Position numbers and translations under genes: made by a program. The notes below the pieces were generated by a model, which worked only from the letters and a program-made list of their open reading frames with translations, searched no databases and was not told the origin of the DNA. Shown piece after piece: positions 4,143 to 48,559 of a stretch of 53,707 nt of DNA (within the stretch, counting starts at the first letter, position 1; every line of letters starts with the position of its first letter). This stretch comes from a virus: the IMG/VR virus record IMGVR_UViG_3300013132_000064, positions 1-53,707 of that record. One strand, given 5' to 3'.

Positions 4143-4513
4143 TTCTTTGGTACCCTTCCAGATATTCCTACAACAGGATATCCTGTAGAATTTTTTATTC
4201 TTAATATTAGTTTAACAGAGACTGGTTTAGTTGTATAGTCTAGGACCATGGACTTGATGCTGATATCTTCTAGCTTTGGGATTAAGCTAGATATTGAGCC
4301 CTCTTGATACTCTTCTGCTAATGACTGAAATTGAGTAGAAAAATATTTATCAGTACCGCTTCCTATGGAGGTTGTTGTTCCCTTTATAGTTCCGCTTACT
4401 AACCTAATGGCTGAAGGGTCTATGGCAAGAGCCTTGGGATCAGTATCTACTCCAAATAGAGGTGCTACTTGATCTATTTGATTGCTAGACTTTTTAGAAT
4501 TTACTGCTGACAT
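4139..4513 (-). CDS. Small tail-tip protein of unknown function
   Basis: A 124-residue protein that I do not recognise. It has a polar N-terminus and a mostly beta remainder with no cysteine, membrane segment or enzyme motif. It lies between two tail-tip genes and overlaps the next one by 4 bases (ATGA). The start has no Shine-Dalgarno sequence; instead TATAAT sits 6 bases upstream of the ATG, the arrangement expected of a leaderless transcript. A small virion or assembly component is the most economical reading. Confidence 0.6.
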   Translation of the reverse strand: MSAVNSKKSSNQIDQVAPLFGVDTDPKALAIDPSAIRLVSGTIKGTTTSIGSGTDKYFSTQFQSLAEEYQEGSISSLIPKLEDISIKSMVLDYTTKPVSVKLILRIKNSTGYPVVGISGRVPKK

Positions 4514-4519
4514 TTTTTA

Positions 4520-4525
4520 ATTATA
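4520..4525 (-). promoter_or_regulatory. Candidate -10 element for a leaderless transcript
   Basis: TATAAT lies 6 bases upstream of the ATG at 4513, in the 16-base gap after the previous stop, and no Shine-Dalgarno is present. No convincing -35 hexamer is visible at 17 bases. The distance suits initiation at or next to the A of the start codon. In AT-rich DNA a chance match is possible. Confidence 0.4.
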
Positions 4526-4529
4526 CCAT

Positions 4530-6200: not shown

Positions 6201-8212
6201 TTAGTTTTCCACCCCACATTTTTTAAACCCTTCCATTGGCTAACTACGTTTGCAGGATTTGGTGAATGAGAAGAAATTTTTGTGCCTAAAGCACCTCTTG
6301 TTTTAATTCTATATTGATTTGTTGTAATAAAGTCTAGGCCAAAAGAACTACTTGTTGTATCTGAAACTGTCCTAGCTTTGCCCTTGTACTTGGCAAGATC
6401 TGCAGGACCTGTAATATCAATATATACTGTTTGTCCTACGGTATAAGATACTCCATTTATAGTATCGTTTACTGCTGTTGTATATTTATATCGTATTGCA
6501 TCGTACTCAATAATTTCTTGATTTAATAAAAGATAGCCTGAAAATTCTGGAAGAACTGTGCTTAGCTTTGATATTTGATCATCAATAATAAATATTGGTT
6601 TAAGCGTGATATATTTATTAGCTTCGCTCCATGTAGACTTAGTTTCGTTTGTCACATTACCAAGAGAAGATTCAAGAGATGCAGATATTAAAGAAGTATT
6701 GTCAACCGACACCAGTTCTTTAGCGCTTTGCTCATACGTTGTAAGATAGGCTGTGCTATATAAAACTCTGATTTGATTTACTGATGGGAGGTCTCTTAAA
6801 TTCATTGAAACAATATTAGGAAGCTCTCCGCTAGCGCCTGCCGCATATCTAAATGTCCAGTTAATATTTCTAGAGGCACTAAACATATAGTCTCTTGAGT
6901 AAAATTGTAATACATTGTTTTCGTCTACCGAAGCCGACATCTGTATATCTTTACATAGTTCTTGAAGCATTACCCATACCGTTTTTGTACTATCACTCCA
7001 CCAGTAATCTGGGGTTATTATAGACTTGTCGTCTGAAGTTAAGTTAAAATTATAATTGGTAAAACCAACTGAGTCGAGCATTCTTCTTATAATAGCAACA
7101 GCAGAATATCCATCACAAACCATGTCTGGGCAGATTGTTTCTTGCAGTACCTTAGCGTAATCTAAAGCGAACAAAGCTGCCTCTCCATATTCGCCAATAG
7201 ACCAGCTATCTAAAATAAATACACCTTGTGGTATTTTAAAATAAGCTCCATTTAAATCGGTTAATGTTCCGTCTGGGTGGTACAGCTTTGCATATGACTT
7301 AATCTCTGCGTGCTTAGACAAGTATATGTAATCAGTATCTATTTCTTCTACTGCTATCTTGGAGTATGATTTAAACAGTATGTCAGTATCATTAAATCCA
7401 TTTAGCCCTACCTCTAAAGAATTAGCAGTCAAGTTTCCAACTGGCAGGATTCCCTCGCTGCTAGATGAGGAGTCTTTTGTAATACTTAAAGACAATATAT
7501 TGTTGGTTATATCTTTTACCCAATGTGGAGATAGTTCTATTACACCTATGTACCCGCCAGGGTTTACCGCAGTTAGTGCTAATGTGCTAACCATTACGTG
7601 TGCATCTGGATTTAAAGAATTTTCTGATCTTGTCCATCCTGTACCTGTGTAATAAATCTCAACCACACCATTTGCGGGAACAGTCTTAGATAAAGATGAA
7701 GACACATCTGTTCCATCTATTAATACAGACCAAGATGTAGGGATGCGGTGACCTATTTCAAACTTAAAAACTATTTTATTGCATGGGACCTTTTTATTTT
7801 TTTCGCTTACGGCAACTCCTGATTGGAAATACCTGATACCTATTGAAGCATTTTCATTTAAGGGCGTAACAAAATATTTATAATATACGTCTTTGGATGG
7901 ATAATATGTTCTATACGGATGTAGATAGTTATTGTTTCTTGGATCAGCCCAGCTCTTTTCAGTTATATCTCCAGAGATAGCATATTTTACTCCACCAGCA
8001 ACTGGCCTAAAAGTTTTAACAATTGTATCTAGTGGGAATAATTTTTTAAATGGGGACTTTCCCTGTATTACAGCGTATGGGTTTCCAGTCAAATCATCAT
8101 CAGAAAGAGTGACAAGTGTATTGCAATTAATATCAATTAATGCGCCTGCCGTAGACTGTACGGTTTGGCTTTTGTTAAAGGTATCAGTAACTTTTGAATC
8201 TACCGATATCAT
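6197..8212 (-). CDS. Tail hub / tail-tip protein (Tal-like)
   Basis: The 671-residue protein follows a Dit-like gene directly, as expected for a tail hub. An N-terminal adhesive-looking beta region reaches about residue 230 and includes IRYFQSG and WSVLIDGTDV. A middle section has the pattern common in hub proteins: a jelly-roll stretch LDSWSIGEYGEAALFALDY, then DGYSAVAIIRRMLDSVGF, then YWWSDSTKTVWVMLQELC and FYSRDYMF (about 350-460). The C-terminus (YRIKTRGALGT) also occurs in minor tail proteins. It starts one base after the previous stop with GAGG upstream and overlaps the next gene by 4 bases. The hub assignment rests on motif order and synteny, not on a database match. Confidence 0.65.
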   Translation of the reverse strand: MISVDSKVTDTFNKSQTVQSTAGALIDINCNTLVTLSDDDLTGNPYAVIQGKSPFKKLFPLDTIVKTFRPVAGGVKYAISGDITEKSWADPRNNNYLHPYRTYYPSKDVYYKYFVTPLNENASIGIRYFQSGVAVSEKNKKVPCNKIVFKFEIGHRIPTSWSVLIDGTDVSSSLSKTVPANGVVEIYYTGTGWTRSENSLNPDAHVMVSTLALTAVNPGGYIGVIELSPHWVKDITNNILSLSITKDSSSSSEGILPVGNLTANSLEVGLNGFNDTDILFKSYSKIAVEEIDTDYIYLSKHAEIKSYAKLYHPDGTLTDLNGAYFKIPQGVFILDSWSIGEYGEAALFALDYAKVLQETICPDMVCDGYSAVAIIRRMLDSVGFTNYNFNLTSDDKSIITPDYWWSDSTKTVWVMLQELCKDIQMSASVDENNVLQFYSRDYMFSASRNINWTFRYAAGASGELPNIVSMNLRDLPSVNQIRVLYSTAYLTTYEQSAKELVSVDNTSLISASLESSLGNVTNETKSTWSEANKYITLKPIFIIDDQISKLSTVLPEFSGYLLLNQEIIEYDAIRYKYTTAVNDTINGVSYTVGQTVYIDITGPADLAKYKGKARTVSDTTSSSFGLDFITTNQYRIKTRGALGTKISSHSPNPANVVSQWKGLKNVGWKTK

Positions 8213-8213
8213 T

Positions 8214-8699
8214 TTATACCTCTTCCAGAGTTAGCGATACATCCCAAAATTCTTGAGCAGGGTCTGCGGTTTTACCCTTAACATTTCTTTTTACTACTGT
8301 AAAATTACAAGAAGTAAATACAGCCAAAATCTCATCGTCTCTGTCTACCGTATTGCTCCCTACAACTTCTTTACCATAAACAATTTTTACTTTAAATGAA
8401 GATCTCCCTTTTGACGCAAGGGCATAATACTCTTGTATATCTACTGCTCCCCATCCTCCGTCTACTGTAAGACTTGATCTTGACGGAAGCATTCTCCAAG
8501 AAACACTAACAGACTTTTTATCAGCCACCCAATATTTTCTTAAGAATCCATTTGCCATTCTTTGAGATTTTTCAATTCTATTTATGTTTACGGAAGATGG
8601 CTCTCTGTTATGCTCTGAGATTTTTTGCCACGTTGGAGTAGAGGTTGAAGATGTATCAAAATATATAAGGGAGCCTACTGGCAAGAATACTGTTGACAT
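8214..8699 (-). CDS. Distal tail (Dit-like) or minor tail protein
   Basis: The 161-residue beta-rich protein lies directly after the tape measure, the usual place of the distal tail protein. Visible motifs are WRMLPSRSSLTVDGGWGA, YYALASKGRSSFKVKI and FWDVSLTLEEV. The start overlaps the tape measure stop in TAATG, so translation is probably coupled. No catalytic features are seen. Its role would be to join the tail tube to the hub and baseplate. Size, position and beta content support this, but no signature is decisive. Confidence 0.6.
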   Translation of the reverse strand: MSTVFLPVGSLIYFDTSSTSTPTWQKISEHNREPSSVNINRIEKSQRMANGFLRKYWVADKKSVSVSWRMLPSRSSLTVDGGWGAVDIQEYYALASKGRSSFKVKIVYGKEVVGSNTVDRDDEILAVFTSCNFTVVKRNVKGKTADPAQEFWDVSLTLEEV

Positions 8700-11600
8700 T
8701 AGCTATTACTTCTCGGCAAGCCAAGGCGAGCCAAGTCCTTTCTTTGTAGATCCACAATATATCTTCCGATATCTTCCTTAGACATATTCTCAGGAATATT
8801 ATATGTATTTTTTATTTGCACTACTGTAGGGCTACCTACGGCGGCTGCTTGATTCATTGTACCATTTCTTAGTGAATTAATATAGTCTGTATCGTAGACT
8901 CCTTCGGTTCCTGCCCTTAATATTGCTCCAACCTCTTGTCCATAACCTCCAGGAACAGCGCCATTCCAGTCATGGAACTTTCTAATTTCCCCAGCATACC
9001 CTCCCATTGCCATCTTCATAATATCAAATGGTCTCTTTGAGAAATCAGATATCTTTTTAAATCCGACTCCAGCTCCCTCAAAAAGAGATAGAATATCATA
9101 TCCCTTATCCTCTAAAACATTTGCGTATGTATTTCTTGAGTTTGCGGTAATTTTACCCAGCCATCCGCCTCTGTTGACTATTCCTTTTACTCCAACATCC
9201 TTTAGTACATTAGCCAGATTAAACCAAGCATATGGATTTAATCTAGATGTTGTTTCAGCTACAACTTCCCCTGCTGTGCCCTCTGCTTTTAATGCCCTTA
9301 GCAGGTGTTGATAATGCTCAAATTTTCTTCCTGGCAGTGCTAGCTTAGAAGGATTATTTAATGCGGCGCTAACCAATGCTTTGTACGCATCTGGGTTTTG
9401 AGAGAAAATGCTTGGAGCATTATGTCTTAAATCTATTACTTCGCTTGGCTTTAGCTTAGCAAATATTTCATATAGGTTTGATGTTTTGCCACGTGATAGC
9501 AATTCAGATCCAAACATTGATGCAGTAGTAATGTCGTCAGTAGCAAAGAACTTTCCTCCAAGCCATCCACCAGAACCTCCAGATCTGGCTGTGTCTAAAA
9601 TACCTTGCTCTAAATTTCCTCCATGGAACATTCTAGAAGATAAAAATTCCTCTAAAGATTTACTAGATGCAAATCCAGGCATATGCAAAGTATCTTTCAT
9701 TTTTACTGGGTTTCCAGTAAAAGGCAATTCTATTTTTGAAGAAAGCAGGCTTTCAAAGGTGCTTGCTTTGGGAGCCTCTATTGCAGCTTTTGCAACTTTA
9801 CCTGGGCCTGCGAAAGGAATGGCGGCCATTGCAAGATTTGCATAATCTCCCTTAGTTCCACTTCCACGAATTATTTCTGATACTCTTCTAACTAGGTCTG
9901 AAGTCATTAACTTATGCATCAATGGATTATGTATTCCCAGAACTTTTTCTGTGATTCCCAAAGATGCCAAGGCGTACATTTGTAATGCATTTAATCCCTT
10001 GCTAGAAGCTCCAGCAGCCATTCCCATCGCATGAGGAGCCGAGCTATAATTTACTGATCCGCCACCTTTAAGTTTCTTTGCATTTAATGCATCAAAAGTT
10101 TCTTTACCGTAGTGATCTACTGCTGCTGCACGTATTACATATTCCCCATCAGACAAATATGCTGGAATAGAATCAGATGTAGAAGTACCTGGGCCACTAA
10201 CTCCTCCGCCTGGCCCGTAATACTGTACCTGTCCACCAGAAGCCAACCTTTTAACGGTAACCCTATCTCCATTTACACTTGTTACTTCGTAGCGCTTTCC
10301 ACTAGTTGTACTAAATTGCGTTCCTTTAATTGGAGTAATGTCTGCATCTTCTAAAGCCTTTACATTTGTTTGGTAAACTGGAACGCCGCCAGCGCTACCG
10401 CCCTTTATGTTCTTATCATCTAAAGGCTTTTGAGTTGCGCCTGCGAATAGAGCAACTGCAGCAGCGAACGCATCAACAGAAGATTTAAATTGTGCATTTC
10501 CTCCTACTTGCTTATTAAGAGCATTTACAAGGCCCTGCGCCCAACCCATTTGATATACACTATCGCCTTGTCCATATGCGCTACGCATACTTCTTGCCGC
10601 AGTTTGAACTTCTATTGGCGAATCTTCGTCTAACATTTCTGCAAAAATAGTAGAAATTTCTTGTGCGTCTGCTCTACTCATTATATTTTTGCCAAAATTA
10701 CGTAAAGCAATTTCTTCTAATCTATCTCTATAGCTTTCGAGTTGAGCCAAGTCTGCTGCTTTTTGAGTAGCATTTGCTGTTTTGGCATTATAAGAATCTT
10801 GAGCTTGCTTTAATTCTTTTTGCAAATCCTCAATTCTTTTTTCTAACTTATCAATTTTTGTATCATAAGTATCATTAATCTTGTCTCTAGTAAGCTGTCT
10901 TTGTCTATCTGCAACTAATTTTTCTATGGCCAGCTGTTCTTGTGCTGCAAGAGCTAGGTCTCCTGTGGCTACTGCTTGACTGTATCTAATTTGTGCTTGA
11001 GATAACTGGACCTCATACGTTTGGGCCTGCTCTTGAACATCTAGAGCTTTAAGCCTTGCAGCCCTTTCTTCTTGCAATGCTTTTATTGTTTTTTGAATAT
11101 TGTCTATTTTATTCTTATAATAATCTTCGTCAACCTTTTTTAATTTAGCAACTACGTCCTTGGCATCTTTAGCCTCTTTCTTAACTCTTGCAATTATATT
11201 GGCCAAAGGTAATAGTGGGTTTTTAGATCCTTTCGATGTATCTTCAGTAACTGAATTCATAACATTCTGCACAATTGCCAAATTCTTTGCAAATGCTGCT
11301 GCCTGCTCTGCCCCCATGGCAGCTAAGTTTACGATTTCTCCAAATCCAGCCTGATAAAGCATTATCTTTGCTGTAATGCTTTCTATTGTTTCCGCTGCTC
11401 CTAGTATTGCACTATAAATTATATTTTCATTTTTTAACGCTTCAAGATTATCTTCAGATATTTCTTTTTGTGCGCCCTTCATCTTGGAAATTTTTTCCAT
11501 AGTTAATTCAAGGGCATCTGCTTGATCTAGAATATTTTCATTTTCATCTTTTGTTCCTACCAGAGCATCCTTATATATAATGATAGAATTTAATAAAGTG

Positions 11601-25560: not shown

Positions 25561-27279
25561 TTATACGCTTCGAATAACTATATATTCATCATCATAGTAT
25601 TCTGCGCCAGAGTCTGTCACCTCTAATGACGAAAGTGAGCTTGATAGGGCAGGTCTAGATATATATGAATTATAATTATCTACTATATCTGCTTCTGAAA
25701 AAATAGATTCATAAAGGGCTATATTATTATATGAATTAGAGGGGCCAGCCAAATTAAAATTAATATCTCCATTTATTGAAGAGTCTGTCACTATAGTCAC
25801 CAAATAAAGCATGTCTGAGGCGAATACAGAGCCGATAGATGATGTGGAGGTCTTTGATACCCCATTGACATAAAACTGGCTTATACCCGTCTTAGAAATT
25901 GCTCCAGAGCCATTCCAGGACAGGTTTAGCCCAGAAGAATTTACTAGGGTTGTAGCTGTTAATGCTGAGGGTCTAAAAAAGAACTCTATTGTTCTAATAT
26001 TAGAGGCATTTATTTTAAATCCATTATTTGGGATTGTCACAATACCGTCATTTTTAAATCTTAATAGTGGGGGAAGATTAAAAGAAGATACAGAATAATC
26101 ATAATCTGATTCTATTTTATACCCATAATTTTGAGCATATACGTCCTTACTGGAATAAAATTTAATTTTAAACTTAGAGAATCTTGGTAAATACTTAGAG
26201 GCGTCGCTAGAATATATTCTTATTTTAATGTATAGCAGTCCTTCTGAAACTGTTGTGCCTTTATTATAGAATGGCATAAAAGATCCGTTAGAGCATTCTT
26301 CATAATTTTCTCCGTCTTGGCTGACAAATACCGTAATACCTTTATCCGCCAGCCATTCTATTTTTGAGGAAATTATTCCTAGGCTAGGGGGCACGTTTAA
26401 TATATCGTACAAGAAAACTTCTTTTGATTCTGAAGCTTCCGATAAATAAAAAGATAGAAATCCAAAGCTTGGATCATAGAACAAATCTTCTTCTACAAAG
26501 CTTTTCATTTTATCTGGTGTAAATTCGTAAGTAAATACCTTGGGCATGTCTTCTTCATTTGTTGGGAAGAGATACCCTCCTTTTGAATCTACTATTTGAA
26601 AAGGACTGACTGATATTATGCCGCTTAAATAATGATCGTATATTTTATTAGATGTAAGAGCATACCTATAAACTGCTGGTGCATCTACTATAAAATAATC
26701 ATTAGCGCTTTCTGTTGGACCTAGGTATAGAGACAAAGAAGAGTTATCAAATTTAAATCCTGATATAGACTTTGAAGCAACTTCTGCTCCATCTATAAAA
26801 AGCTTAATAGAATTAATTGCATATACCCCAACTAAGTGCATTACCTTTTTGCTGTTTGAAATAGTATATGTAGCTTCATGAGATTGAATTTTAAATATTA
26901 CATTTCCATTTTCATAGAAAAGACCTATTCCTGCAGACTCGTCTGCAAACAATACTGTTCTATCTGAAGTAGTTATATTCTGATGAATCCAAACCTCTAT
27001 TGTAAAATCATTATCAGATGTATCTATATCTCCTAGTCCTCCACTTGCCGTAGAGGCATAGTAGTCTTTTGTTGTAGGAAGAGATATATATTTAGAATTA
27101 TTAATTAAATTACCAGCAGCCCCACCTGGAATAAGTGGAAGTATTGATGAGTCTAGGCCTCCATAATATGTTCCGTTATTAGCACACCCAGAATTATCAA
27201 ATGCAATAGATCCAGAAGATTCATCTAGCTTCCAAAATCCTATTGGATAATCTCTTATAACTTTAAGATGATATGACAT
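25561..27279 (-). CDS. Virion protein with two LamG-like jelly rolls
   Basis: I choose ATG 27279 (MSYHLKVIRDYPIGFW), which has GGAGGT 7 bases upstream and overlaps the glycosyltransferase by 17 bases; product about 572 residues. Residues about 10-220 form a LamG/concanavalin-like domain (GFWKLDESSG, FTIEVWIHQN, KLFIDGAEVAS, APAVYRYALTSNKI). A second, diverged copy lies at about 425-560 (RTIEFFFRPSAL, QFYVNGVSK, NIALYESIFSEADI). Between them is a beta-rich linker. Such domains bind glycans or act as virion decoration. The neighbouring glycosyltransferase and fibres suggest a surface role. Confidence 0.8.
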   Translation of the reverse strand: MSYHLKVIRDYPIGFWKLDESSGSIAFDNSGCANNGTYYGGLDSSILPLIPGGAAGNLINNSKYISLPTTKDYYASTASGGLGDIDTSDNDFTIEVWIHQNITTSDRTVLFADESAGIGLFYENGNVIFKIQSHEATYTISNSKKVMHLVGVYAINSIKLFIDGAEVASKSISGFKFDNSSLSLYLGPTESANDYFIVDAPAVYRYALTSNKIYDHYLSGIISVSPFQIVDSKGGYLFPTNEEDMPKVFTYEFTPDKMKSFVEEDLFYDPSFGFLSFYLSEASESKEVFLYDILNVPPSLGIISSKIEWLADKGITVFVSQDGENYEECSNGSFMPFYNKGTTVSEGLLYIKIRIYSSDASKYLPRFSKFKIKFYSSKDVYAQNYGYKIESDYDYSVSSFNLPPLLRFKNDGIVTIPNNGFKINASNIRTIEFFFRPSALTATTLVNSSGLNLSWNGSGAISKTGISQFYVNGVSKTSTSSIGSVFASDMLYLVTIVTDSSINGDINFNLAGPSNSYNNIALYESIFSEADIVDNYNSYISRPALSSSLSSLEVTDSGAEYYDDEYIVIRSV

Positions 27280-28339
27280 CCGACTCACCTCCATTTACTG
27301 CTTTATTGTAAAATAAAACATTGTCTACTAATCTTGGATCGTATTTTAGACCTAATGCCATTTTACCATGCTCTAATGCCTCATTGTAAAATCCTAGGTA
27401 GTAGTTCGCCAAAGCCGACAGATCGTATGGCTTCCATCCCCAGGCATCAGCTTCACAAAAATACTCTAGATATTTTTTCTTTATTAATAAGGCTTTATCT
27501 GCAAACTCTTTAGTCTGTTCCCAATCTTGTTTTTCGTAATACAATTGAGCAAGATCTACAAAGGGCTCTCTTCTTTCAGGGCACTCTTCTATTGCTTGTC
27601 TTAACCAGAACTCTGCATTATCTGGCTCACACTTTGCTAAGTATCTCATAGACTCACATCTCTCTGGCTTCCAGACTGCTGAAGGCAGGCTAAGATGTCT
27701 TCTAAACTCTTTGGCGGCATCTTCGTAACTTAATCTGTAATACAATTCTCTAGCATAATAATGAGAGTTTCTATCGCTTGCTGGATCTTCTTGAACTGCT
27801 AAAGATAGTAGAGCTAAATATTGGGATCTAGATTTTAAATTATCTGGCAAATGATATATTTTAATATCTGTTGATTGTTTTTTTTCTTCTATTCCATATG
27901 GCCCAACAGATTCATGAACTGGGTACTTCCACCTATACCCTTGTCTCTTGTGTATTCTTAAGGCTTCAAATTCTAGTCCTGGGTCGCCTATTTGATCTAT
28001 ATGAGTAACTAATTTATGTAATGGTCTATTTATTTCAGGATTTAATTTTTCTATTTCTGATCTCCAGCCTTTGGACAGTACCTCGTCTAAATCTAAAGAT
28101 ATGCAATAATCTATATCCTTTGGCAATAGAGCAAGAGCAGCATTTCTAGCATCATCAAATCTCCAAGGGTTAATAGAAATATTAAAAACATTTATACCAA
28201 GTGATTTAGCTATCTCTACTGTTTGGTCTTGTGAGCCTGTATCTGCTATAAGTAAATAATCTGCTTCTTTTGCAGACTCATACCATCTTTTTACAAATTG
28301 CTCTTCATTTAATGCGATACTGTATACCGCTATTTTCAT
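27263..28339 (-). CDS. GT2-type glycosyltransferase with C-terminal TPR repeats
   Basis: ATG 28339 is chosen because GGAG lies 7 bases upstream and the protein then begins MKIAVYSIALNEE, the standard GT2 opening; 358 residues. ADTGSQDQT (32-40) and the metal-binding DLD (83-85, in SLDLDEVLSKGW) are the nucleotide-sugar site. Residues about 185-330 contain TPR-like helices (YYARELYYRLSYEDAAKEF, FVDLAQLYYEKQDW, YYLGFYNEALEHGKMAL). GT2-TPR enzymes glycosylate proteins or surface polymers. It sits between a collagen-like fibre and a LamG protein, so a virion target is plausible but not shown. The donor sugar cannot be told. Confidence 0.85.
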   Translation of the reverse strand: MKIAVYSIALNEEQFVKRWYESAKEADYLLIADTGSQDQTVEIAKSLGINVFNISINPWRFDDARNAALALLPKDIDYCISLDLDEVLSKGWRSEIEKLNPEINRPLHKLVTHIDQIGDPGLEFEALRIHKRQGYRWKYPVHESVGPYGIEEKKQSTDIKIYHLPDNLKSRSQYLALLSLAVQEDPASDRNSHYYARELYYRLSYEDAAKEFRRHLSLPSAVWKPERCESMRYLAKCEPDNAEFWLRQAIEECPERREPFVDLAQLYYEKQDWEQTKEFADKALLIKKKYLEYFCEADAWGWKPYDLSALANYYLGFYNEALEHGKMALGLKYDPRLVDNVLFYNKAVNGGESDVISS

Positions 28340-28353
28340 TCTTACTCCAATGA

Positions 28354-30753
<2,400 letters not shown>

Positions 30754-33327: not shown

Positions 33328-33575
33328 TAGTTAGGCACCTCTATTTCTAGCCATTCATCATGGTTAATGTATTGTGGATCTTCGGGAAGCAATTCTGCTG
33401 GCTTCTTGAATTTTCCTTCTTCTATTTTCCAGGCAACTCCTGGTTTAATTTCTAAATCTGTTATATCAACTCTTTCAAAAGCTGACCAATCTGGATGAGA
33501 TGAAACAAATTCTTCATCTGCTATTATAATGTTTCCAACAACACCATTTGCAATAATTGCCCATTCTCTTGCCAT
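33327..33575 (-). CDS. Small fibre-associated protein
   Basis: The 82-residue protein opens MAREWAIIANGVVGNIIIADEEF and continues VDITDLEIKPGVAWKIEEGKF. This V-x-NIIxAD ... PGxxW ... GKF pattern recurs in small proteins encoded beside phage fibre genes and is usually left unnamed. A related but diverged protein is encoded directly before it at 33577-33858, and another resembles it at 46947-47276. It probably helps fibre assembly or attachment. Overlap TAATG links it to the glycine-rich protein. Confidence 0.6.
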   Translation of the reverse strand: MAREWAIIANGVVGNIIIADEEFVSSHPDWSAFERVDITDLEIKPGVAWKIEEGKFKKPAELLPEDPQYINHDEWLEIEVPN

Positions 33576-41073: not shown

Positions 41074-41694
41074 CTAAAATATCATGCTTGTAGCTTGAAT
41101 TACTGAGTTGTTCATAGTCATGTTTGCCAATGTCTGGTACTTAGGATAGTATACACCAAGATTTAACTGTTGGTCTACCTTCCAACTATTTAACTCATCT
41201 ATTACATTTTGTACTGCTGTTTCTCCAGCTGGTCCTGTGGCACCAGTTGGTCCTGTTACTCCTTGTGCTCCTGTATTTCCAGATGGGCCTTTGATATTGC
41301 CAACTAGACCCCAAATCTCCGTCGAAGAATTATATTGGAAATAATCTCCAGAAGTTGTATTTAAATATGTATCTAATCCATTCTTTTGTGCTGGGTTAGA
41401 TGTTGTAGGGTTTGCAATTCCAGTAAATGTATATGATCCTCTTGCTCCAGGAGTTCCTTGAGTTCCCGCCGCTCCTGCTGCGCCTGTTGGACCGATTGGA
41501 ATTTGAAAATTGAATATAGCAGCTCCAGAAGAACCAGAGTTTGTTACGGCTGCTGGAGATCCTGCTGGCACTACGTTTACAGTTCCAATAGAAATTGTTG
41601 CTGCGGCACCAGTTGGTCCTGTTGCACCCTGTGGGCCAGGACGAGATCCAGCTACGGTTACCCAAGCTGTGCCATTCCATCTTTTTAGTGACAT
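41074..41694 (-). CDS. Short collagen-like fibre
   Basis: The 206-residue protein begins KRWNGTAWVTVAGSRPGPQG, then alternates short Gly-x-y runs with one copy of the IGTV ... VTNSGSSGAAIFNFQIPIGPTG module also found three times in the 799-residue fibre. One YLNTTSGDYFQYN ... IWGLVGNIKGPSG unit resembles the second module type there. It ends with a helical segment (about 170-206). AGGAGG lies 11 bases before the ATG. It probably forms a thin trimeric fibre or a connector between fibres. Confidence 0.75.
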   Translation of the reverse strand: MSLKRWNGTAWVTVAGSRPGPQGATGPTGAAATISIGTVNVVPAGSPAAVTNSGSSGAAIFNFQIPIGPTGAAGAAGTQGTPGARGSYTFTGIANPTTSNPAQKNGLDTYLNTTSGDYFQYNSSTEIWGLVGNIKGPSGNTGAQGVTGPTGATGPAGETAVQNVIDELNSWKVDQQLNLGVYYPKYQTLANMTMNNSVIQATSMIF

Positions 41695-41734: not shown

Positions 41735-44170
41735 CTATTCAAATCCCATCCAAGCGAGGGCTTTTAAATCCTCGAAGACTGAAGAGTTCGTTGATATTGT
41801 CTCGTTAATATTCGATGCAGTAACTATTTTAAGCCAGTTGCCCTGAGTTCTAACATAAGCAGCTCCTGTAGCTGCATCTGCTGCTATAAAGCCATTTGGA
41901 GCATTTGGCGGGAAGTCTGCAATAGTTGGATAATTAGGAAATGATAGTTGATCATAATAGCTTGGGCTTTCGTTTTCATTAATATCTACCCAAAGTTGAA
42001 CGTTGTCTGGATTTGGAGGGGTTGCTCCAAATTCTAATATTGCTCCATCAAATTCATCTGTGTCGATCCAAAGTTCTCCAGGATAAGATGGAGTTGTTGG
42101 CTCATCAGCACTATAAATTAACTCTTGAATTGGCTCTGTAGCGTCTACCCAAAATTCATATTGTTGAGGATCTGGGGCAACTGCTCCTGTAAAGAATTGA
42201 TTGAATGGGGTATCTATATCGTCTACATCAATCCAAAGATCTCCATTACTTGTAGATCCGCTTGGAGGAGCAATAAGTCCAACAAAAAATGTGGATGGGG
42301 ACAACGTGTTGTCTGTAGGTATTAGACTTAGGCCTCCGCCGCCCGTGCCAACCTGAACATCTTGCCACAAGCCTCCTGAATAAACTCTAAGCTTATCTGT
42401 AATTCTATTATAATAAATTTGACCATGAACTCCATTTGTTGGGTTTTGATCCAAAGCTATAATAATTCCGTTTGTAAAAGTATTTGTAGATGTCCAAGTA
42501 TTGTTTGTTGACAAAGATAAATCAGAGGCGACATATTCCCATGTAGAAGACCCAGCATTCCAAACCTTAAGGGCTCTAGTATTTCCTGTTCTGTACTCGT
42601 CTGAATCAAACCAAAATTCTCCATTTGCTGGATTTGTTGGAGCTGAGGCTGAGACAATAGCTTTCGATGGGGGAATTATTGTTTCAAGAATTAACTTATT
42701 TGCCACATCGTCATAAGTAGCATTAATATTTGGGTTTAATCCATGAACAAATAAAGGAGCTATATAGTCTTGAGCCTCTTCTTGTGTTAATTGTGCTGCC
42801 ACCGCCAAATTAATTCTATTATTTACATCGTCATAGGTTGCTGTGACATTTTGATGAAAGGCATGAGTTAGCAAAGATGCTGCTGAATCTTGGGCAGCTT
42901 CTGTAAATCCTGGTAGATCTGCTGTAGTTATAGCAAAATTTAATTTTCCTGAATCATCATCATATGTTGCAGAAAATCCTGTAGGCTCTGTGTTTCCAGA
43001 CACCATTCCGCCTGCAACATCTTGAATTCTTTCGTCTGTGTCTGCCAGGGCTAAGTATGTATTTGCTGCGTCTGTTATATTTAATTTAGTCGCTAAAGCG
43101 TTAGTAATTGTAGTTGCAAAATTAGCGTCATCGCCAATCGCTGCAGCAATTTCATTTAGTGTGTCTAGCAGTCCAGGCGCAGAATCAACTAAATTAGATA
43201 TTGCTGTATTTACATATGTTTGAGTTGCTATTACGCTTGTATCTACAGATACAGTGATTGTATTTAAGGTATCATCAAATGATTTTGTGATTCCATTTCC
43301 TGCAGTAAGCGCTGTTGCTATTGCTGTTACTACTTCGTCGTCGCCATATGTTGCGGTTAAGTTAAGCTTATTGTTTACATCATCAAAAACAACGGTAATT
43401 CCTGTATGAGTACCGCTAGTTACTATGGCAGCTGCTACATCTTCAACTCTTTCTTTAAACTGAGTGCCTGATTCTATTTCATCATATATAAGTTGTTCTG
43501 AAGCAAGGATTGCCTCCTGTTCTGCCGCATCGGCTTTATCTGATGCGTCTGTTGCAGCGGCACTAAGTATAAATGCTTCTCTAGTATCAGTATAAGTTTT
43601 TGCCTCTTGAATTCCAGCAGAAAGTTCTGTGTCTCTAGTAATTGAGGATGGTATTTCTGAATCTGGAATATACCCATCTGGTCCCAGAGAGGCTACTCCA
43701 TCTGGATTGCCTACTTGATTTAACGAAACATAAACTGTCGGTAATGCATTTCCTAAACTGTATACAGCTTCATCTACGTAGGTCTTAGTAGCGACTTCTG
43801 CGCTTGTAGAAATACTATATGTTCTGGTCTGATCGTTATACGTAAATTCTATATTTACGTGATTTCCGCCCTGAAGGGCAGACTTGATTGCGTTATAAGC
43901 TCTATCATTATTAAAGTATTGAGCGGTCAAGCTTTCTGCCACATCGGCAGTAGTTATAGTCTCAACAAAAGTTTTTAGCGTATTTAATACGTTCTGTATT
44001 GAATTTGTATCAGGAGAATTATTGATTCCAAGCTTAAGTTGAATTGCTTCGACTGCGTCATTTAAGTTTCTATGCTGTGCGGAATGGGATAGCTGACCCG
44101 AAGCTCCCATTGATGTAGAGCCAGATGGATTTGGAAAATTATCTAAAGCTGTGGGGTACGACGTAGCCAT
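41735..44170 (-). CDS. Long tail fibre with TYDD repeats
   Basis: The 811-residue protein has a helical N-terminus (HSAQHRNLNDAVEAIQLKLG). The shaft repeats TYDDVNNRINL-like units (VFDDVNNKLNL, TYDDDSGKLNF, TYDDVNNRINL, TYDDVANKLIL; about 265-510). Segment DGVASLGPDGYIPDSEIPSSI (about 155-185) is almost identical to one in the fibre at 48559-50040. Residues about 650-760 repeat a PPxxxxxxxLWxDxDE-like motif four times. It ends with a fibre tip (AYVRTQGNWLKIVTA). TATAAT lies 7 bases before the ATG and no Shine-Dalgarno is visible. It is probably a main side fibre. Confidence 0.75.
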   Translation of the reverse strand: MATSYPTALDNFPNPSGSTSMGASGQLSHSAQHRNLNDAVEAIQLKLGINNSPDTNSIQNVLNTLKTFVETITTADVAESLTAQYFNNDRAYNAIKSALQGGNHVNIEFTYNDQTRTYSISTSAEVATKTYVDEAVYSLGNALPTVYVSLNQVGNPDGVASLGPDGYIPDSEIPSSITRDTELSAGIQEAKTYTDTREAFILSAAATDASDKADAAEQEAILASEQLIYDEIESGTQFKERVEDVAAAIVTSGTHTGITVVFDDVNNKLNLTATYGDDEVVTAIATALTAGNGITKSFDDTLNTITVSVDTSVIATQTYVNTAISNLVDSAPGLLDTLNEIAAAIGDDANFATTITNALATKLNITDAANTYLALADTDERIQDVAGGMVSGNTEPTGFSATYDDDSGKLNFAITTADLPGFTEAAQDSAASLLTHAFHQNVTATYDDVNNRINLAVAAQLTQEEAQDYIAPLFVHGLNPNINATYDDVANKLILETIIPPSKAIVSASAPTNPANGEFWFDSDEYRTGNTRALKVWNAGSSTWEYVASDLSLSTNNTWTSTNTFTNGIIIALDQNPTNGVHGQIYYNRITDKLRVYSGGLWQDVQVGTGGGGLSLIPTDNTLSPSTFFVGLIAPPSGSTSNGDLWIDVDDIDTPFNQFFTGAVAPDPQQYEFWVDATEPIQELIYSADEPTTPSYPGELWIDTDEFDGAILEFGATPPNPDNVQLWVDINENESPSYYDQLSFPNYPTIADFPPNAPNGFIAADAATGAAYVRTQGNWLKIVTASNINETISTNSSVFEDLKALAWMGFE

Positions 44171-44204: not shown

Positions 44205-44471
44205 CTAGATTACGTAGCCGTCGTCCTTTTTAGAAGCCTCTTCTTCAGGATTAAACTGACCCCATTTTCCTACAGGGCATTCTGCATTAGGCAACTTAGT
44301 TTTTGAGTCCATAAGACAGCCACATTTTTTACATTGTTTAGTAAGCTTTATTAAGTGTGGGCATTCTAGGCATATGGCAAATCTTTCAGCAGCAATCTCT
44401 TCTGTGACCCTGCCTATCTTTTTATTAAAAAGATCCCAAGGTCTTGCTGGTCTGTCTGGGTAATCTGTCAT
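44205..44471 (-). CDS. Small zinc-ribbon-like protein
   Basis: The 88-residue protein holds CLECPHL (Cys34, Cys37), QCKKCGC (Cys47, Cys50, Cys52) and ECPVGKW (Cys65), a likely zinc site. Proteins with the pattern ICLECPHL ... CKKCGCLM ... KLPNAECPVGKW occur in aquatic phages and are of unknown role. The N-terminus is basic. It directly follows the GT60-like gene in the same transcript direction and precedes the long fibre. TATAAT sits 6 bases before the ATG. It could bind nucleic acid or a partner protein; neither is shown. Confidence 0.7.
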   Translation of the reverse strand: MTDYPDRPARPWDLFNKKIGRVTEEIAAERFAICLECPHLIKLTKQCKKCGCLMDSKTKLPNAECPVGKWGQFNPEEEASKKDDGYVI

Positions 44472-44477
44472 ATCTAT

Positions 44478-44483
44478 ATTATA
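44478..44483 (-). promoter_or_regulatory. Candidate -10 element for the zinc-ribbon gene
   Basis: TATAAT lies 6 bases before ATG 44471, overlapping the end of the upstream gene, and no Shine-Dalgarno is present. No clear -35 is seen at 17 bases. It is one of five similar start arrangements in the window. Confidence 0.35.
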
Positions 44484-45423
44484 CCTTATCTAGTGGGAAA
44501 AAGGTAGGGGGTATATAAAATTTGCTTTTACACATTTGTTTACCAAACTTTATTCCAGCATAATCCTCATATTGTTTTTTAATAGAACTTTTGTTAATCT
44601 TTTTTTGTATGTATTCCTCTTCCTTTAGATAAATTTCATTTAATTCTTTTTGGCTAGGCAAATACATTGACATACTAAGCCTGTCTCCTCCATGCTGATT
44701 TAATCTATTTTGATATAAGTGAGTTAGCCCAACTTCTAGGTTCGGATGCACAATAGCATATCCAGACTCTATTAAGTCTAATGTCTTTGAATATTCTTCC
44801 GCCCAAAAGAAAACCTCTTCGTCTAGAGTAAGAGATTCTTGATATTTACCTAGAGTAAAAACAAAATTTGCAGAAAATTTTCTTGCTGGGGCAAAATCAA
44901 CCTTTAGTGGATCAAAAGAATTAGCCCACAATGGGAGGACTCTATGAACTAGTTTATCGTTAGTCATATAAGACCACAGAGGAATTGTTGTGTTCGCAAC
45001 AACTCTTTTTCTTTTGCTTTTATAAAAATATTCATTTAAATAAGCAGATAAAATAGTCTTTTCAGAGCCAACAAAATTTATTGCTTGCCCATATAAAGAT
45101 ATCAATCCTTCATCCCAGTTTTTTTCAAATTTTGTATGAGAATCTATTTGTAGTATGTATTTTTCACCATCATACAAGGACTTTGCTCTATTTCTGCCCT
45201 TTGATATACCGAGACTTTCTTTTGCATAAGAAAAGAGCAGCCTAACATTTTTATATTTAGAAAAAGCCTTTTCAATATCTGCCTTTTCTTCTAAGGTCGC
45301 ATATTGATAATGCAGTCCAACATAAACTCTTTTAGGATTCTTTGCTTTTTTAAAAACATCTTTTATCGTCTTGTGTATTTCTAGATCTCTAAGACTAGGC
45401 ACCGAAACAAATATTGTATTCAT
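44479..45423 (-). CDS. GT60-like (GlcNAc domain) glycosyltransferase
   Basis: The 314-residue protein shows the pattern of the PF11397 GlcNAc-transferase family: IFVSVPSLRDLEIHKTIKDVFKKAKNPKRVYVGLHYQ (given by position 4-40), then KESLGISKGRNRAKSLYDGEKY and LQIDSHTKFEKNWDEGL, with Asp94-Ser-His96 at the metal/nucleotide site. FAPARKFSANFVFTLGK and LTLDEEVFFWAEEY lie later (about 195-230). Eukaryotic members add GlcNAc to a hydroxyproline of Skp1; bacterial and phage members are little known. It overlaps the upstream DUF6065-like gene by 4 bases (ATGA). A virion or host-surface target is inferred. Confidence 0.75.
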   Translation of the reverse strand: MNTIFVSVPSLRDLEIHKTIKDVFKKAKNPKRVYVGLHYQYATLEEKADIEKAFSKYKNVRLLFSYAKESLGISKGRNRAKSLYDGEKYILQIDSHTKFEKNWDEGLISLYGQAINFVGSEKTILSAYLNEYFYKSKRKRVVANTTIPLWSYMTNDKLVHRVLPLWANSFDPLKVDFAPARKFSANFVFTLGKYQESLTLDEEVFFWAEEYSKTLDLIESGYAIVHPNLEVGLTHLYQNRLNQHGGDRLSMSMYLPSQKELNEIYLKEEEYIQKKINKSSIKKQYEDYAGIKFGKQMCKSKFYIPPTFFPLDKV

Positions 45424-46205
45424 AGGTATCTTTTTTTCTTTCTATAATCTCTTTTATACATGCCGCCCATTGCCTCACCGCTAGAGTCGTATCTTTCTTT
45501 GTCATACTCTGCAATATCTTTTGCAGAACTTTGAAGAAATTCTCTATTCGGATTATCATGAACTCCAGAATTCCAATCATCTCTTTTAAAAGGAATGACT
45601 TGAACAACTGGGGTGCCTGCTGGAATTTTACCAGAAAAATTATTTTTCATTAAAAACGGGAAAAGAACTGGCATAATATAAGAATCTGTATCTACAACAC
45701 CGCTTAGGGTATAAAATGGTAGATCTGATCTATTTAAAGGGTGAGTAAATAATATACTGTATCCTGGTGGGGTTTTTATCAGGTATTGATTTGACCATTT
45801 AAATGCATAGCTAATAAACTCTGGACTAAATGGCATATCTCCTAACTGTGTTATGGGATGCATTGATACTGCTTTATGCTCTACGTTGTGACCGCCCTTT
45901 ATTTTTGATATATTTTCTTCTTCATCGTGTTCAAAATAATAGTCTTCTGTTGTTGTTAAAAAGTAACCAGTTGTAAAAGCATCTAGCACAGGAATACATC
46001 TTTTTATTGTTAGATCTTCAATTTTAGCATTAGACTTTAACTTTGTTTTTGACGGAATGTTTTTATACCACTCTGGTATGAGCTCAGATCCTCTTTTCAT
46101 TTCCAAAAATTTAATTGAGTTTCTGTCTGACCAAATAAACTCTATTCTTCCATTGTCGGAAGAGCTAGTTATTGTTTTTTTCTTCCACTTATTTCTTTTT
46201 ATCAT
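45420..46205 (-). CDS. DUF6065-like protein, copy 2
   Basis: I choose ATG 46205 (MIKRNKWKKK), with AAGGCAG upstream, because a start at 46295 would overlap the previous gene by over 100 bases; product 261 residues. It is a clear paralogue of the protein encoded just before it: ELIPEWYKN, LDAFTTGYFLTT, GYSILFTHPLNRSDLPFY, IPAGTPVVQVIPFKRDDW. This order matches the DUF6065 pattern (PPGW..L..HP.N ... G.VE.D ... F..G.P...IP). Function is unknown. The fold looks beta-rich. It is coupled to the glycosyltransferase by an ATGA overlap, so a joint role is possible. Confidence 0.7.
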   Translation of the reverse strand: MIKRNKWKKKTITSSSDNGRIEFIWSDRNSIKFLEMKRGSELIPEWYKNIPSKTKLKSNAKIEDLTIKRCIPVLDAFTTGYFLTTTEDYYFEHDEEENISKIKGGHNVEHKAVSMHPITQLGDMPFSPEFISYAFKWSNQYLIKTPPGYSILFTHPLNRSDLPFYTLSGVVDTDSYIMPVLFPFLMKNNFSGKIPAGTPVVQVIPFKRDDWNSGVHDNPNREFLQSSAKDIAEYDKERYDSSGEAMGGMYKRDYRKKKRYL

Positions 46206-46950
46206 AATCTGCCTTATATTTTTTTGGTATCCAAACCTTAGATCTATAAAATCCATAACTAACTTCTCTAGAACTATTTGCCAAGAATTTATCATAATCG
46301 TCCATTATCCTAGCTGTCGATATCCATGAAGATCTTTTAATTGGTATTAGCTGAGCAACTGGAGTTCCTTTTGGAATAATTCCAGTAAATCCTTTTTTAA
46401 TAAAAAACGGCATATTCCCATTAGGGCTAAATCTATCGCTTTCCATTATCCCACTCATAGTAATAAATGGAAGATCAAAATAATTCATTGGATGAGTAAC
46501 AAGCATACTCCATCCTCTGGGCAGCTTCATTCCCCATTTACATTGCCAAACCATGTGACAACTAGAATATCCCTCTGGTCTAGGTATTGTGTGTCCCAAA
46601 TCGCCTTTTCTTTCTGCTAAAACTTCCCAATTTGATGGAGATTCTTGATAGCCGCCAAAAATATCTGGCTCTACATATCTATACTCTACTCCGTCTTCAT
46701 CATTTTTTGTAAACTCAATATCTGCCCAAGATGTTATAAAATATCCAGATGTCAATGCATCTAAAAACGGCATGCACCCCTTCATTCCTGAGACTCTATC
46801 TAAATCAGAACTATCAGTAACTTTGTTTGTTTCTGGATTTAAAAAACTTTCGCCTTTTCTATACCATTCTGGAATGAGGCTAGAGGAGGGTACGGGGGGA
46901 TCTATTGGTAGATGGTATTCTGGTCTTAATACAAAAGTTATTTTTTTCAT
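46189..46950 (-). CDS. DUF6065-like protein, copy 1
   Basis: The 253-residue protein has SLIPEWYRKGESF, KGCMPFLDALTSGYFITSWADIEF, GWSMLVTHPMNYFDLPFITMSGIMESD and IPKGTPVAQLIPIKRSSW. The same landmarks occur in the next gene, so the pair arose by tandem duplication and then diverged considerably. The ending IPKGTPVAQLIP slightly recalls the dUTPase beta motif, but no other dUTPase motif is visible. No membrane segment or signal peptide. It overlaps the upstream gene by 4 bases and the downstream by 17. Function unknown. Confidence 0.7.
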   Translation of the reverse strand: MKKITFVLRPEYHLPIDPPVPSSSLIPEWYRKGESFLNPETNKVTDSSDLDRVSGMKGCMPFLDALTSGYFITSWADIEFTKNDEDGVEYRYVEPDIFGGYQESPSNWEVLAERKGDLGHTIPRPEGYSSCHMVWQCKWGMKLPRGWSMLVTHPMNYFDLPFITMSGIMESDRFSPNGNMPFFIKKGFTGIIPKGTPVAQLIPIKRSSWISTARIMDDYDKFLANSSREVSYGFYRSKVWIPKKYKADYDKKK

Positions 46951-47276
46951 TTATCATGATCGTGGTGATGATGGTGATCAGCGTGATCATCATTTGTATT
47001 AATAAATTTACCGTCTTCGTATTTAAACCCTCTCATGACTTCTTTATTGGAAACATTTACAATTGTGGGTTCGCTTAAAAATATCGCTGCTAATCTAGGC
47101 TGACAGGAAAGAACATCTACAACTTCTCCGTCTATAATAAAAGCAATTCTCTCTGTCATATCTATTGGAGGTGAAGGCAAAGCCTTTTTCTTTTTTATTG
47201 GCTTTATTTTATTAGTAAACTCTTTATATCTTCGATTTCTATATTCTTTTTTAACTTCTTTAAATTTATTGCTCAT
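46947..47276 (-). CDS. Small protein with histidine-rich C-terminal tail
   Basis: The 109-residue protein has a very basic N-terminus (about 1-35, many Lys/Arg), then IAFIIDGEVVDVLSCQPRLAAIFLSEPTIV, a pattern of small fibre-associated proteins. The last 14 residues alternate Asp and His, including five consecutive His (DDHADHHHHHDHDK), a likely metal-binding tail. It overlaps the cysteine-rich virion protein gene by one base (TAATG) and the DUF6065-like gene by 4. It may be a metal-binding or assembly partner of the cysteine-rich protein, but this is only context. Confidence 0.65.
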   Translation of the reverse strand: MSNKFKEVKKEYRNRRYKEFTNKIKPIKKKKALPSPPIDMTERIAFIIDGEVVDVLSCQPRLAAIFLSEPTIVNVSNKEVMRGFKYEDGKFINTNDDHADHHHHHDHDK

Positions 47277-48559
47277 TAAGACACCCTAAATTCGTTTATC
47301 TCCGATGTTTGAGAATCTGCGTAGGTCACAGGAGACTTTAGTATACCATGTTTTTTAGTTTTTGTATATCCTGAAACAGTTGTTGATTGATCAGATCCTA
47401 TTTGAGAAGTATAGTTAGAGCCAGAAAAAGCTCTTACGGTAACGCTGTTTCCGCTTAATATAGTTCTAAATCCAGCTATAGTTGATGCAAAAACAAATGT
47501 AGCAACAACACTAACAGTTCCTGATATTGATCTCAAAACCCTAACTCTATTACTTACAACACAATTACAGGTAAAAGAATTCCCTGGGGACCAAGCTGAA
47601 CAACAATTTGCAGCAAAAGCATTACAATTGCCACCTGTTGAAGGGTTGTTGGCTGTTGCCCAACCTGAACAATTTCCTGGGTTCGTTCCACTTGACCAAC
47701 TGTTGCAAGTAAATGAGAACCATTGAGTTGGAGGGTTTGTTGGATTTGTAGTTGCACAGTTTCCTCCACTTGGTGGATTAGTTCCTGAACTAGTATTCCC
47801 AGCAGCGCAATTTCCTCCAGCTATATTATTACTACATCTTTTACAGCCGTTTGGCCCACTGAGTCCGCCGCAAGAAGATGAGGTACAGCAGCTGCCCCCG
47901 CATAAAGAAGAAGACGCTCCATTACAGCTAGCGCAACCACCGCAACCACATGTATAATTAGTTACTGCTTGAAAATTATTCCATGTTGTGCATGTAAATA
48001 TAGTAAAAGGATTTCCTGGAACTATTGGGTTCCATGTTGCACAATTTCCGCCACCGCCTGCATTCCATCCTGAGTTGGTAGTCCCAGCGCTGCAGGTAGT
48101 AAATGGAGTTCCTGGATTGAAGTTTTGACAAAAAGTATAAGAGTTTCCTGGCACTACGGGATTTGTATTTCCATTACAACAAGTAAAGAATTGATTGCAG
48201 ACTGCTGAATTAAAACATGTTTGACATTGCTGTACGCCGTCTACTGTTGTGCCCCACCAAGTTCCAGCATCGGTAACCCAAAAAGATGATCCCACCCCTG
48301 GACCTACTCCATCCACAGAAATAGTTACATCTTCTTTTGTAAATGTAAGAGTGGCTAAAGGATATGTTGCAGGACTGTCTCCGCTTAAAGCTTTATTATT
48401 AGATATACCCCATGTTCCTTTTATTTGAGCCCAAGGAGATCCACCAGTTGAACCTAAAGAAAATGCATTATTTGATCTATCAAACAAATCAATAGCAGAC
48501 AACAAAGCTTTTAGCCTTGATACTGCAATATTTTTTCTTCTTCTAATTGCACCAGCCAT
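47276..48559 (-). CDS. Jelly-roll virion protein with a 28-cysteine insertion
   Basis: The 427-residue protein splits a LamG-like jelly roll in two. The first part (about 20-107) has LFDRSNNAFSLG, WAQIKGTWGISNN and GSSFWVTDAGTWWG. The second (about 338-427) has VATFVFASTIAGFRTIL and closes HGILKSPVTY ... INEFRV. Between them, residues 112-333 contain 28 cysteines, with three CC pairs, a CGCGGCASC cluster and recurring PGNSFTC-like units. Such a domain could be heavily disulfide-bonded or metal-binding. The start overlaps the previous stop (TAATG). It is presumably exposed on the virion. Confidence 0.75.
   Translation of the reverse strand: MAGAIRRRKNIAVSRLKALLSAIDLFDRSNNAFSLGSTGGSPWAQIKGTWGISNNKALSGDSPATYPLATLTFTKEDVTISVDGVGPGVGSSFWVTDAGTWWGTTVDGVQQCQTCFNSAVCNQFFTCCNGNTNPVVPGNSYTFCQNFNPGTPFTTCSAGTTNSGWNAGGGGNCATWNPIVPGNPFTIFTCTTWNNFQAVTNYTCGCGGCASCNGASSSLCGGSCCTSSSCGGLSGPNGCKRCSNNIAGGNCAAGNTSSGTNPPSGGNCATTNPTNPPTQWFSFTCNSWSSGTNPGNCSGWATANNPSTGGNCNAFAANCCSAWSPGNSFTCNCVVSNRVRVLRSISGTVSVVATFVFASTIAGFRTILSGNSVTVRAFSGSNYTSQIGSDQSTTVSGYTKTKKHGILKSPVTYADSQTSEINEFRVS

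What the first reader, a model, noticed from the sequence alone, without database searches (positions are those of the whole stretch)
44205..46950. Four-gene cassette in the fibre block: two DUF6065-like genes, GT60-like enzyme, zinc ribbon
The genes are overlapped and co-oriented, and none is an obvious virion part. In eukaryotes GT60 enzymes add GlcNAc to hydroxyproline on Skp1 after a hydroxylase acts. Here the neighbours are fibres rich in Gly-Pro-Thr. A phage system that modifies collagen-like fibres, with the DUF6065-like pair as cofactor or preparatory enzyme, is a testable idea. I see no iron-binding HxD motif conserved between the pair, so a hydroxylase role is not supported by sequence.
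Basis: inference. Interest (0 to 1): 0.8.

Follow-up and report, generated by a model that had tools for sequence, protein, structure and literature searches.

The report
Phage fibre-side sugar-transfer gene module
In many freshwater phages a sugar-transferring enzyme travels with one or two uncharacterised proteins folded like dUTP-cleaving enzymes, next to a loop-bearing tail-fibre gene; it probably decorates the phage's own particle, but the collagen-like fibres are not its likely target.

Summary
Zinc ribbon, GT60-like enzyme and two DUF6065-like genes lie at 44205-46950, co-oriented and mostly overlapping. A fifth coupled gene (46947-47276) was missed. The module is conserved: in 80 GT60 loci, DUF6065 lies within four genes in 62, usually downstream of a Ser/Thr/Asn-rich, often Cys-rich, fibre gene like 47276-48559.

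The AlphaFold model of DUF6065 (pLDDT 92) matches only dUTPases and dCTP deaminases among its 50 best PDB hits. The dUTPase catalytic motifs are not kept. There is no conserved iron-binding motif, so a hydroxylase role is not supported.

The collagen idea fails three tests. Ten of 25 records with the module show no collagen match. GT60 and collagen are not associated within fibre-block loci (p=0.7). Orthologues of the window's collagen-like protein (76-79% identical) occur in records without GT60. A different gene, a GT2-type glycosyltransferase (27263-28399), overlaps the long collagen-like gene, tracks collagen (p=0.001), and lies just downstream of collagen-like genes in isolated phage DSL-LC01.

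Best reading: a module for glycosylating a late phage protein, probably the adjacent loop-bearing fibre, with DUF6065 as a dUTPase-fold partner. Substrate and DUF6065 role are inferred, not shown.

The parts
44205..44471 (-). 88-aa zinc ribbon (Cys pairs; phrog_13558, weak DUF6171), last gene of the unit
   Evidence: relatives in 32 of 80 GT60 loci
44479..45423 (-). GT60-like glycosyltransferase, 314 aa, catalytic QIDSHT motif intact
   Evidence: PF11397 E 5.1e-31, phrog_24687 E 1e-28; alignment A3
45420..46205 (-). DUF6065-like protein B, 261 aa from the likely ATG at 46205 (the longest ORF starts at 46295); 4-base overlap with GT60
   Evidence: PF19541 28.3 bits (cut-off 26.6), phrog_7084 E 8e-46; start read
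46189..46950 (-). DUF6065-like protein A, 253 aa, dUTPase-like beta-clip fold
   Evidence: phrog_7084 E 2e-35; AlphaFold pLDDT 92.4; PDB fold search
46947..47276 (-).
   Evidence: within 2 genes of GT60 in 41 of 80 loci; AlphaFold pLDDT 85.5, no PDB fold match
47276..48559 (-). 427-aa fibre-block protein with a long Cys/Ser/Thr/Asn/Gly-rich insert between conserved flanks; proposed substrate (inference)
   Evidence: family in 46 of 80 GT60 loci; composition; no Pfam or PDB sequence match
41735..44170 (-). 811-aa tail-fibre protein downstream of the module
   Evidence: PHROG tail-fibre families; orthologues 53-61% identical without GT60
41074..41694 (-).
   Evidence: PF01391 25.7 bits, just under the cut-off of 27.2; orthologues 76-79% identical in records without GT60
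27263..28399 (-). second glycosyltransferase (GT2 type, phrog_13126), overlapping the long collagen-like ORF; better candidate for a collagen-linked enzyme
   Evidence: association with collagen
28354..30753 (-). 799-aa collagen-like protein
   Evidence: PF01391 E 2.7e-15

Best explanation
The unit is a late phage glycosylation module. The GT60-like enzyme adds a sugar, by family precedent an alpha-linked GlcNAc, to Ser/Thr side chains of a phage protein made at the same time, most probably the fibre protein encoded directly upstream (47276-48559), whose long Ser/Thr/Asn/Cys-rich insert resembles a mucin-like acceptor. DUF6065 is a dUTPase-fold (beta-clip) protein that has lost the dUTPase catalytic motifs but keeps an Asp-x-Asp and a Gly-Thr-Pro-x-x-Gln at the equivalent places; it acts as a nucleotide- or substrate-handling partner of the transferase, not as a hydroxylase and not as a fibre. 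Shown: gene content, conservation of the unit, the fold assignment at model level, absence of hydroxylase motifs, lack of a specific link to collagen. Inferred: that GT60 acts on protein, that the upstream fibre is its substrate, and what DUF6065 does.
For: GT60 fold family and intact QIDSHT/His columns. DUF6065 within 2 genes of GT60 in 54 of 80 and within 4 in 62 of 80 loci; 33 of 48 after removing near-copies, against a permutation mean of 17.1 for <=3 genes (observed 31, p 5e-4). The link spans deeply diverged GT60s. The upstream loop-bearing fibre is present in 46 of 80 loci, typically 3-5 genes upstream on the same strand. Its insert is rich in Ser, Thr and Asn in GT60 loci. GT60 family members are known that act on threonine of mucins without any hydroxylase (PMC3769586, PMC6939170). 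50 of 50 top PDB fold matches of DUF6065 are dUTPase/dCTP deaminase, best E 4.5e-4; viral-library dUTPases too; profile alignment pairs PxGY, GxxDxD and GxxxxQ (p 2e-4 and 5e-3).
Against: No biochemistry. The same fibre family also occurs next to DUF6065 without GT60 (L024, L026, L030), so GT60 is not obligatory for it. The GT60 search was seeded with DUF6065-linked sequences, which favours linked loci. Fold-search TM-scores over the query are low (0.25-0.31) and only three PDB hits pass E 0.001. DUF6065 has a life without GT60: one copy next to thyX/RNR genes in haloviruses and in Rhizobiales chromosomes, so its basic role need not be glycosylation.
Confidence: 0.45

Rival explanations
1. The module modifies collagen-like (Gly-Pro-Thr) fibres, a phage analogue of Skp1 hydroxyproline glycosylation.
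For: A GPT-rich protein lies 2.5 kb downstream; raw co-occurrence of GT60 and collagen runs in DUF6065 loci is positive (odds 3.9, p 0.007); six of 48 or more relatives have a 2OG-Fe(II) oxygenase within 2-3 genes of GT60.
Against: The raw association vanishes within loci that have the fibre (8/21 vs 5/10, p 0.70). 10 of 25 module-bearing records, six of them 73 kb or longer, have no collagen match. Orthologues of the collagen-like protein (76-79% identical) and of the next fibre occur in records without GT60, one of 95.6 kb. The 2OG oxygenase enrichment near GT60 is not significant (p 0.07) and the window has none. A separate GT2-type gene tracks collagen instead.
Confidence: 0.12
2. DNA or nucleotide modification: DUF6065 works on a nucleotide (dUTPase fold) and GT60 glycosylates modified bases.
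For: dUTPase-like fold; in haloviruses the gene neighbours thymidylate synthase, DNA polymerase or ribonucleotide reductase; many GT60 loci have a DNA-methylase-like gene two genes on (PF01555); phage DNA glycosyltransferases are well known (cited in PMC12619734).
Against: No thymidylate synthase/hydroxymethylase homologue in any of 25 records and no Tet/JBP match over cut-off. GT60 family precedents act on protein. The genes sit in the late structural block, transcribed with fibres. dUTPase catalytic motifs are absent.
Confidence: 0.15
3. DUF6065 is a virion or assembly protein (trimeric beta-clip, as in some decoration or fibre proteins) and GT60 modifies the host surface, for example to block superinfection.
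For: Conserved position among fibre genes; beta-clip trimers occur in virions (general knowledge); no catalytic motif recognised.
Against: Nine columns are invariant across 50 diverse sequences including Cys59, Asp172 and Tyr235, more typical of a binding site; bacterial chromosomal members outside phages; the halovirus copy lies on the opposite strand from the tail genes; arrays of 3-4 copies sit among oxygenases and halogenases, not fibres.
Confidence: 0.18

Closest known systems
GT60 (PF11397): Dictyostelium/Toxoplasma Skp1 Gnt1 and Trypanosoma cruzi pp-alpha-GlcNAcT
   Same: Sequence family, QIDSHT catalytic motif, expected polypeptide acceptor; the T. cruzi enzyme needs no hydroxylase and targets Thr in mucin-like repeats (PMC3769586, PMC6939170).
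   Different: Only 25-35% identity even among phage copies; joined to DUF6065, a small protein and a zinc ribbon; substrate and donor untested.
Trimeric dUTPase / dCTP deaminase superfamily (PF00692, PF22769)
   Same: Predicted fold; GxxDxD and GxxxxQ positions align.
   Different: Canonical motifs 2, 4 and 5 are absent (2/50, 0/50, 0/50) and motif 3 fails in its strict form (0/50); no Pfam dUTPase match in 50 members; about 100 residues longer.
Mycobacteriophage virion glycosylation by phage-encoded glycosyltransferases (Freeman et al. 2023, known via PMC12619734)
   Same: Phage-encoded transferases acting on the phage's own structural proteins.
   Different: Different enzyme family and different proposed target; no DUF6065 partner was described in the passages read.
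Actinophage DSL-LC01 collagen-halogenase-GT2 block (OQ999401)
   Same: Glycosyltransferase downstream of GPT-rich fibres in a late block; its GT is 52% identical to window 27263-28399.
   Different: No GT60 or DUF6065 in that block.

Membership tests
GT60 (PF11397) | Profile match above the curated cut-off | tested here: met
   108.9 bits against 21; E 5.1e-31
GT60 (PF11397) | Catalytic QIDSH motif and conserved C-terminal His | tested here: met
   D94, H96 and H235 in A3
GT60 (PF11397) | UDP-GlcNAc:polypeptide transferase activity | not testable with these tools
   needs assay
DUF6065 (PF19541) | Profile match above the curated cut-off | tested here: inconclusive
   B 28.3 bits (met), A 14.4 bits (not met), cut-off 26.6; both align with 48 relatives, 31 of 50 members match at E<=0.1
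Trimeric dUTPase | Fold | tested here: met
   model-level: top 50 PDB hits all dUTPase/DCD, best E 4.5e-4, low TM over query
Trimeric dUTPase | Motif 2 (P-R/K-S-x), motif 4 (GxRxAQ), motif 5 (GGFGST) | tested here: not met
   2/50, 0/50, 0/50
Trimeric dUTPase | Motif 3 catalytic Asp | tested here: inconclusive
   D170 in 47/50 (Glu in window A), D172 in 50/50, but the strict motif is absent
2OG-Fe(II) hydroxylase | Conserved HxD/E...H | tested here: not met
   one His-rich column only (H153, 41/50); the HxD/E...H pattern in 7/50
Skp1-type hydroxylation-glycosylation pathway | A prolyl hydroxylase coupled to GT60 | tested here: not met
   no 2OG family in the window; enrichment near GT60 in relatives p 0.07
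Collagen-fibre modification system | Cassette tracks collagen-like genes | tested here: not met
Phage virion glycosylation system | Glycan on a virion protein | not testable with these tools
   needs glycoproteomics

The most novel reading that the evidence does not exclude
DUF6065 is a dUTPase-superfamily protein re-used by phages as a general partner of late modifying enzymes: in different phages it is paired with GT60, other glycosyltransferases, 2OG-Fe(II) oxygenases or flavin halogenases, up to four paralogues in tandem, and serves the chemistry that decorates phage particles.
Probability: 0.25. Interest if true: 0.75.

Novelty: new variant of a known kind. Interest (0 to 1): 0.5.

Why it matters
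It puts a fold on a large, unannotated phage and bacterial family (DUF6065) and names its recurrent enzyme partners, which gives a concrete starting point for assays. If the fibre is glycosylated by GT60, phages would share with trypanosomes a Thr-type O-GlcNAc initiation enzyme, and the modification would bear on host recognition and immunity to phage. It also separates two glycosyltransferases in one phage, redirecting the collagen question to the GT2-type gene, for which isolate DSL-LC01 offers a cultured test case.

Tried and rejected
Hydroxylase role for DUF6065: no conserved iron ligands, dUTPase-like fold. DUF6065 as a true dUTPase: motifs absent, no Pfam hit in 50 members. Collagen as GT60 substrate. 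DNA hypermodification: no thymidylate synthase or Tet/JBP homologue in 25 records. Sequence search of the PDB with DUF6065, GT60 and fibre profiles: nothing. Fold search of the small 109-aa protein: nothing significant. NCBIfam: no match for the window's proteins. Bacterial DUF6065 neighbourhoods (ECF sigma and anti-sigma-like genes) gave no functional hint. The upstream fibre's composition does not differ clearly between loci with and without GT60, so composition does not prove it is the substrate. Literature: no paper in the library mentions DUF6065. In HF2 only four major virion bands were identified (PMC7230728); the passages read do not give the locus tags of all four, so whether the DUF6065 orthologue is a virion protein was not settled.

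Full report
What is there. The window is a 53.7 kb virus record with portal, head protease and tail genes. Its head protease is closest (about 43% identity) to Streptomyces phages, so an actinobacterial host is likely but not shown. On the minus strand the genes run: Cys/Ser/Thr-rich fibre-block protein (48559-47276), 109-aa small protein (47276-46947), DUF6065 A (46950-46189), DUF6065 B (46205 or 46295 to 45420), GT60 (45423-44479), zinc ribbon (44471-44205), 811-aa fibre (44170-41735), 206-aa collagen-like protein (41694-41074). The 4-base overlaps suggest translational coupling.

Conservation. Gene order around them was tabulated. A scan seeded with 16 GT60 proteins gave 80 loci. In these DUF6065 lies within 2 genes of GT60 in 54 and within 4 in 62; the small protein within 2 genes in 41; the zinc ribbon within 4 in 30; the loop-bearing fibre somewhere in 46. 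After removing near-copies, 33 of 48 loci have DUF6065 within 4 genes. Shuffling gene labels within loci gives a mean of 17.1 for the <=3-gene count against 31 observed (p 5e-4). A tree of 53 GT60s shows the link on one large, deeply diverged side (36 of 41), while a clade of 11 proteins of 414-435 aa is not linked; the window's own GT60 branches near that clade on a long branch. Caveat: the seed came from DUF6065-linked loci, so the proportion linked is an upper estimate for GT60 at large.

Fold of DUF6065. With 50 aligned sequences AlphaFold gave pLDDT 92.4, pTM 0.88. All 50 best PDB fold matches listed are dUTPases or dCTP deaminases (best E 4.5e-4; TM over target up to 0.62, over query about 0.3). 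Viral-library hits are DUF6065-like proteins and then dUTPases. A profile comparison with nine dUTPases taken from related genomes aligned PxGY, GxxDxD and GxxxxQ. But canonical motifs 2, 4 and 5 are missing and no member matches the dUTPase Pfam family. So it is dUTPase-like in fold, not a dUTPase by these tests. Nine columns are invariant (P27, W29, C59, G69, S148, D172, T196, P197, Y235), which suggests a conserved site.

Partners of DUF6065. In 87 non-redundant viral DUF6065 loci, 45 have a recognisable modifying enzyme within three genes: 2OG-Fe(II) oxygenase 16, GT60 15, tryptophan-halogenase-like 12, other glycosyltransferases 7 and 7, methyltransferase 5 (family names). Contigs L151-L158 hold three or four tandem DUF6065 copies between oxygenases and halogenases. 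In haloviruses it is a single gene between the tail module and thymidylate synthase or ribonucleotide reductase. In Rhizobiales it is a lone chromosomal gene. DUF6065 is therefore a general partner, not a GT60 accessory only.

Test of the collagen idea. (a) Collagen runs of at least 8 Gly-X-Y lie within about 10 kb in only 19 of 80 GT60 loci. (b) In 25 whole records with the module, the collagen family is over cut-off in 14, below in 1 and absent in 10, of which six are 73 kb or longer; records may be fragments. (c) The raw association of GT60 with collagen (p 0.007) disappears inside fibre-bearing loci (8/21 vs 5/10, p 0.70). (d) L024, L026 and L030 carry orthologues of the window's collagen-like protein (76-79%) and fibre (53-61%) downstream of a DUF6065 but no GT60 in records of 37.7, 24.2 and 95.6 kb. 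(e) The GT2-type gene family of window 27263-28399 does track collagen (9/14 vs 8/49, p 0.001; within fibre-bearing loci p 0.02), is adjacent to or overlapping a collagen-like gene in the window, L207, L235, L239 and L028, and in isolated phage DSL-LC01 lies downstream of two GPT-rich collagen genes and a tryptophan halogenase.

Mechanism. GT60 precedents act on protein: hydroxyproline of Skp1 after a hydroxylase, or threonine of mucins with no hydroxylase (PMC6939170, PMC3769586). With no hydroxylase in the window and a minority in relatives, the threonine/serine precedent fits better. The constant neighbour is the loop-bearing fibre, whose insert is rich in Ser/Thr/Asn with Cys in some and Tyr in other relatives. 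I infer this as the acceptor. DUF6065 would handle a nucleotide or the acceptor. These last steps are inference.

Noticed in passing
window 27263-30753: GT2-type glycosyltransferase (phrog_13126) overlapping a 799-aa collagen-like ORF; the pair tracks across relatives and in isolate DSL-LC01, making it the better candidate for collagen-fibre modification.
   Followed up: partly
L151-L158 (e.g. L151:6779-10155): Three to four tandem DUF6065 genes flanked by several 2OG-Fe(II) oxygenases and a tryptophan-halogenase-like gene.
   Followed up: partly
L268 (OQ999401) 3583-10125: Isolated freshwater actinophage with two GPT-rich collagen genes, an unknown protein, a tryptophan halogenase and a glycosyltransferase in one run.
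   Followed up: partly
L005, L006, L009-L011: Haloviruses of Hafunaviridae carry one DUF6065 gene between the tail module and thymidylate synthase or ribonucleotide reductase, on the strand opposite the tail genes.
   Followed up: partly
window 46947-47276; L235:8966-9370: The small protein has a His/Asp-rich tail (HHHHHDHDK; DHDHDHSHDHDHGHDH in L235), possibly metal-binding.
   Followed up: no
L014:6917-7189, L015, L144, L214: A thioredoxin-like gene lies between DUF6065 and the zinc ribbon, in loci whose fibre is Cys-rich.
   Followed up: no
L209, L253, L221 fibre genes: In relatives the fibre insert is Tyr/Ser/Thr repeats (e.g. SYSYATNYG, YTYSYTAPYTY) in place of the Cys-rich insert seen in the window.
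   Followed up: no
L189-L195, L204-L219, after the zinc ribbon: A DNA-methylase-like gene of about 248 aa (PF01555 in L029) follows the zinc ribbon in many GT60 loci.
   Followed up: no
L103-L136 (Rhizobiales): Chromosomal DUF6065 gene near what look like an ECF sigma factor, an anti-sigma factor and a conserved 460-600 aa protein (names by eye, not scanned).
   Followed up: no
window 33330-33575: Weak second match to the small-protein family (E 8e-4) in another part of the fibre region.
   Followed up: no
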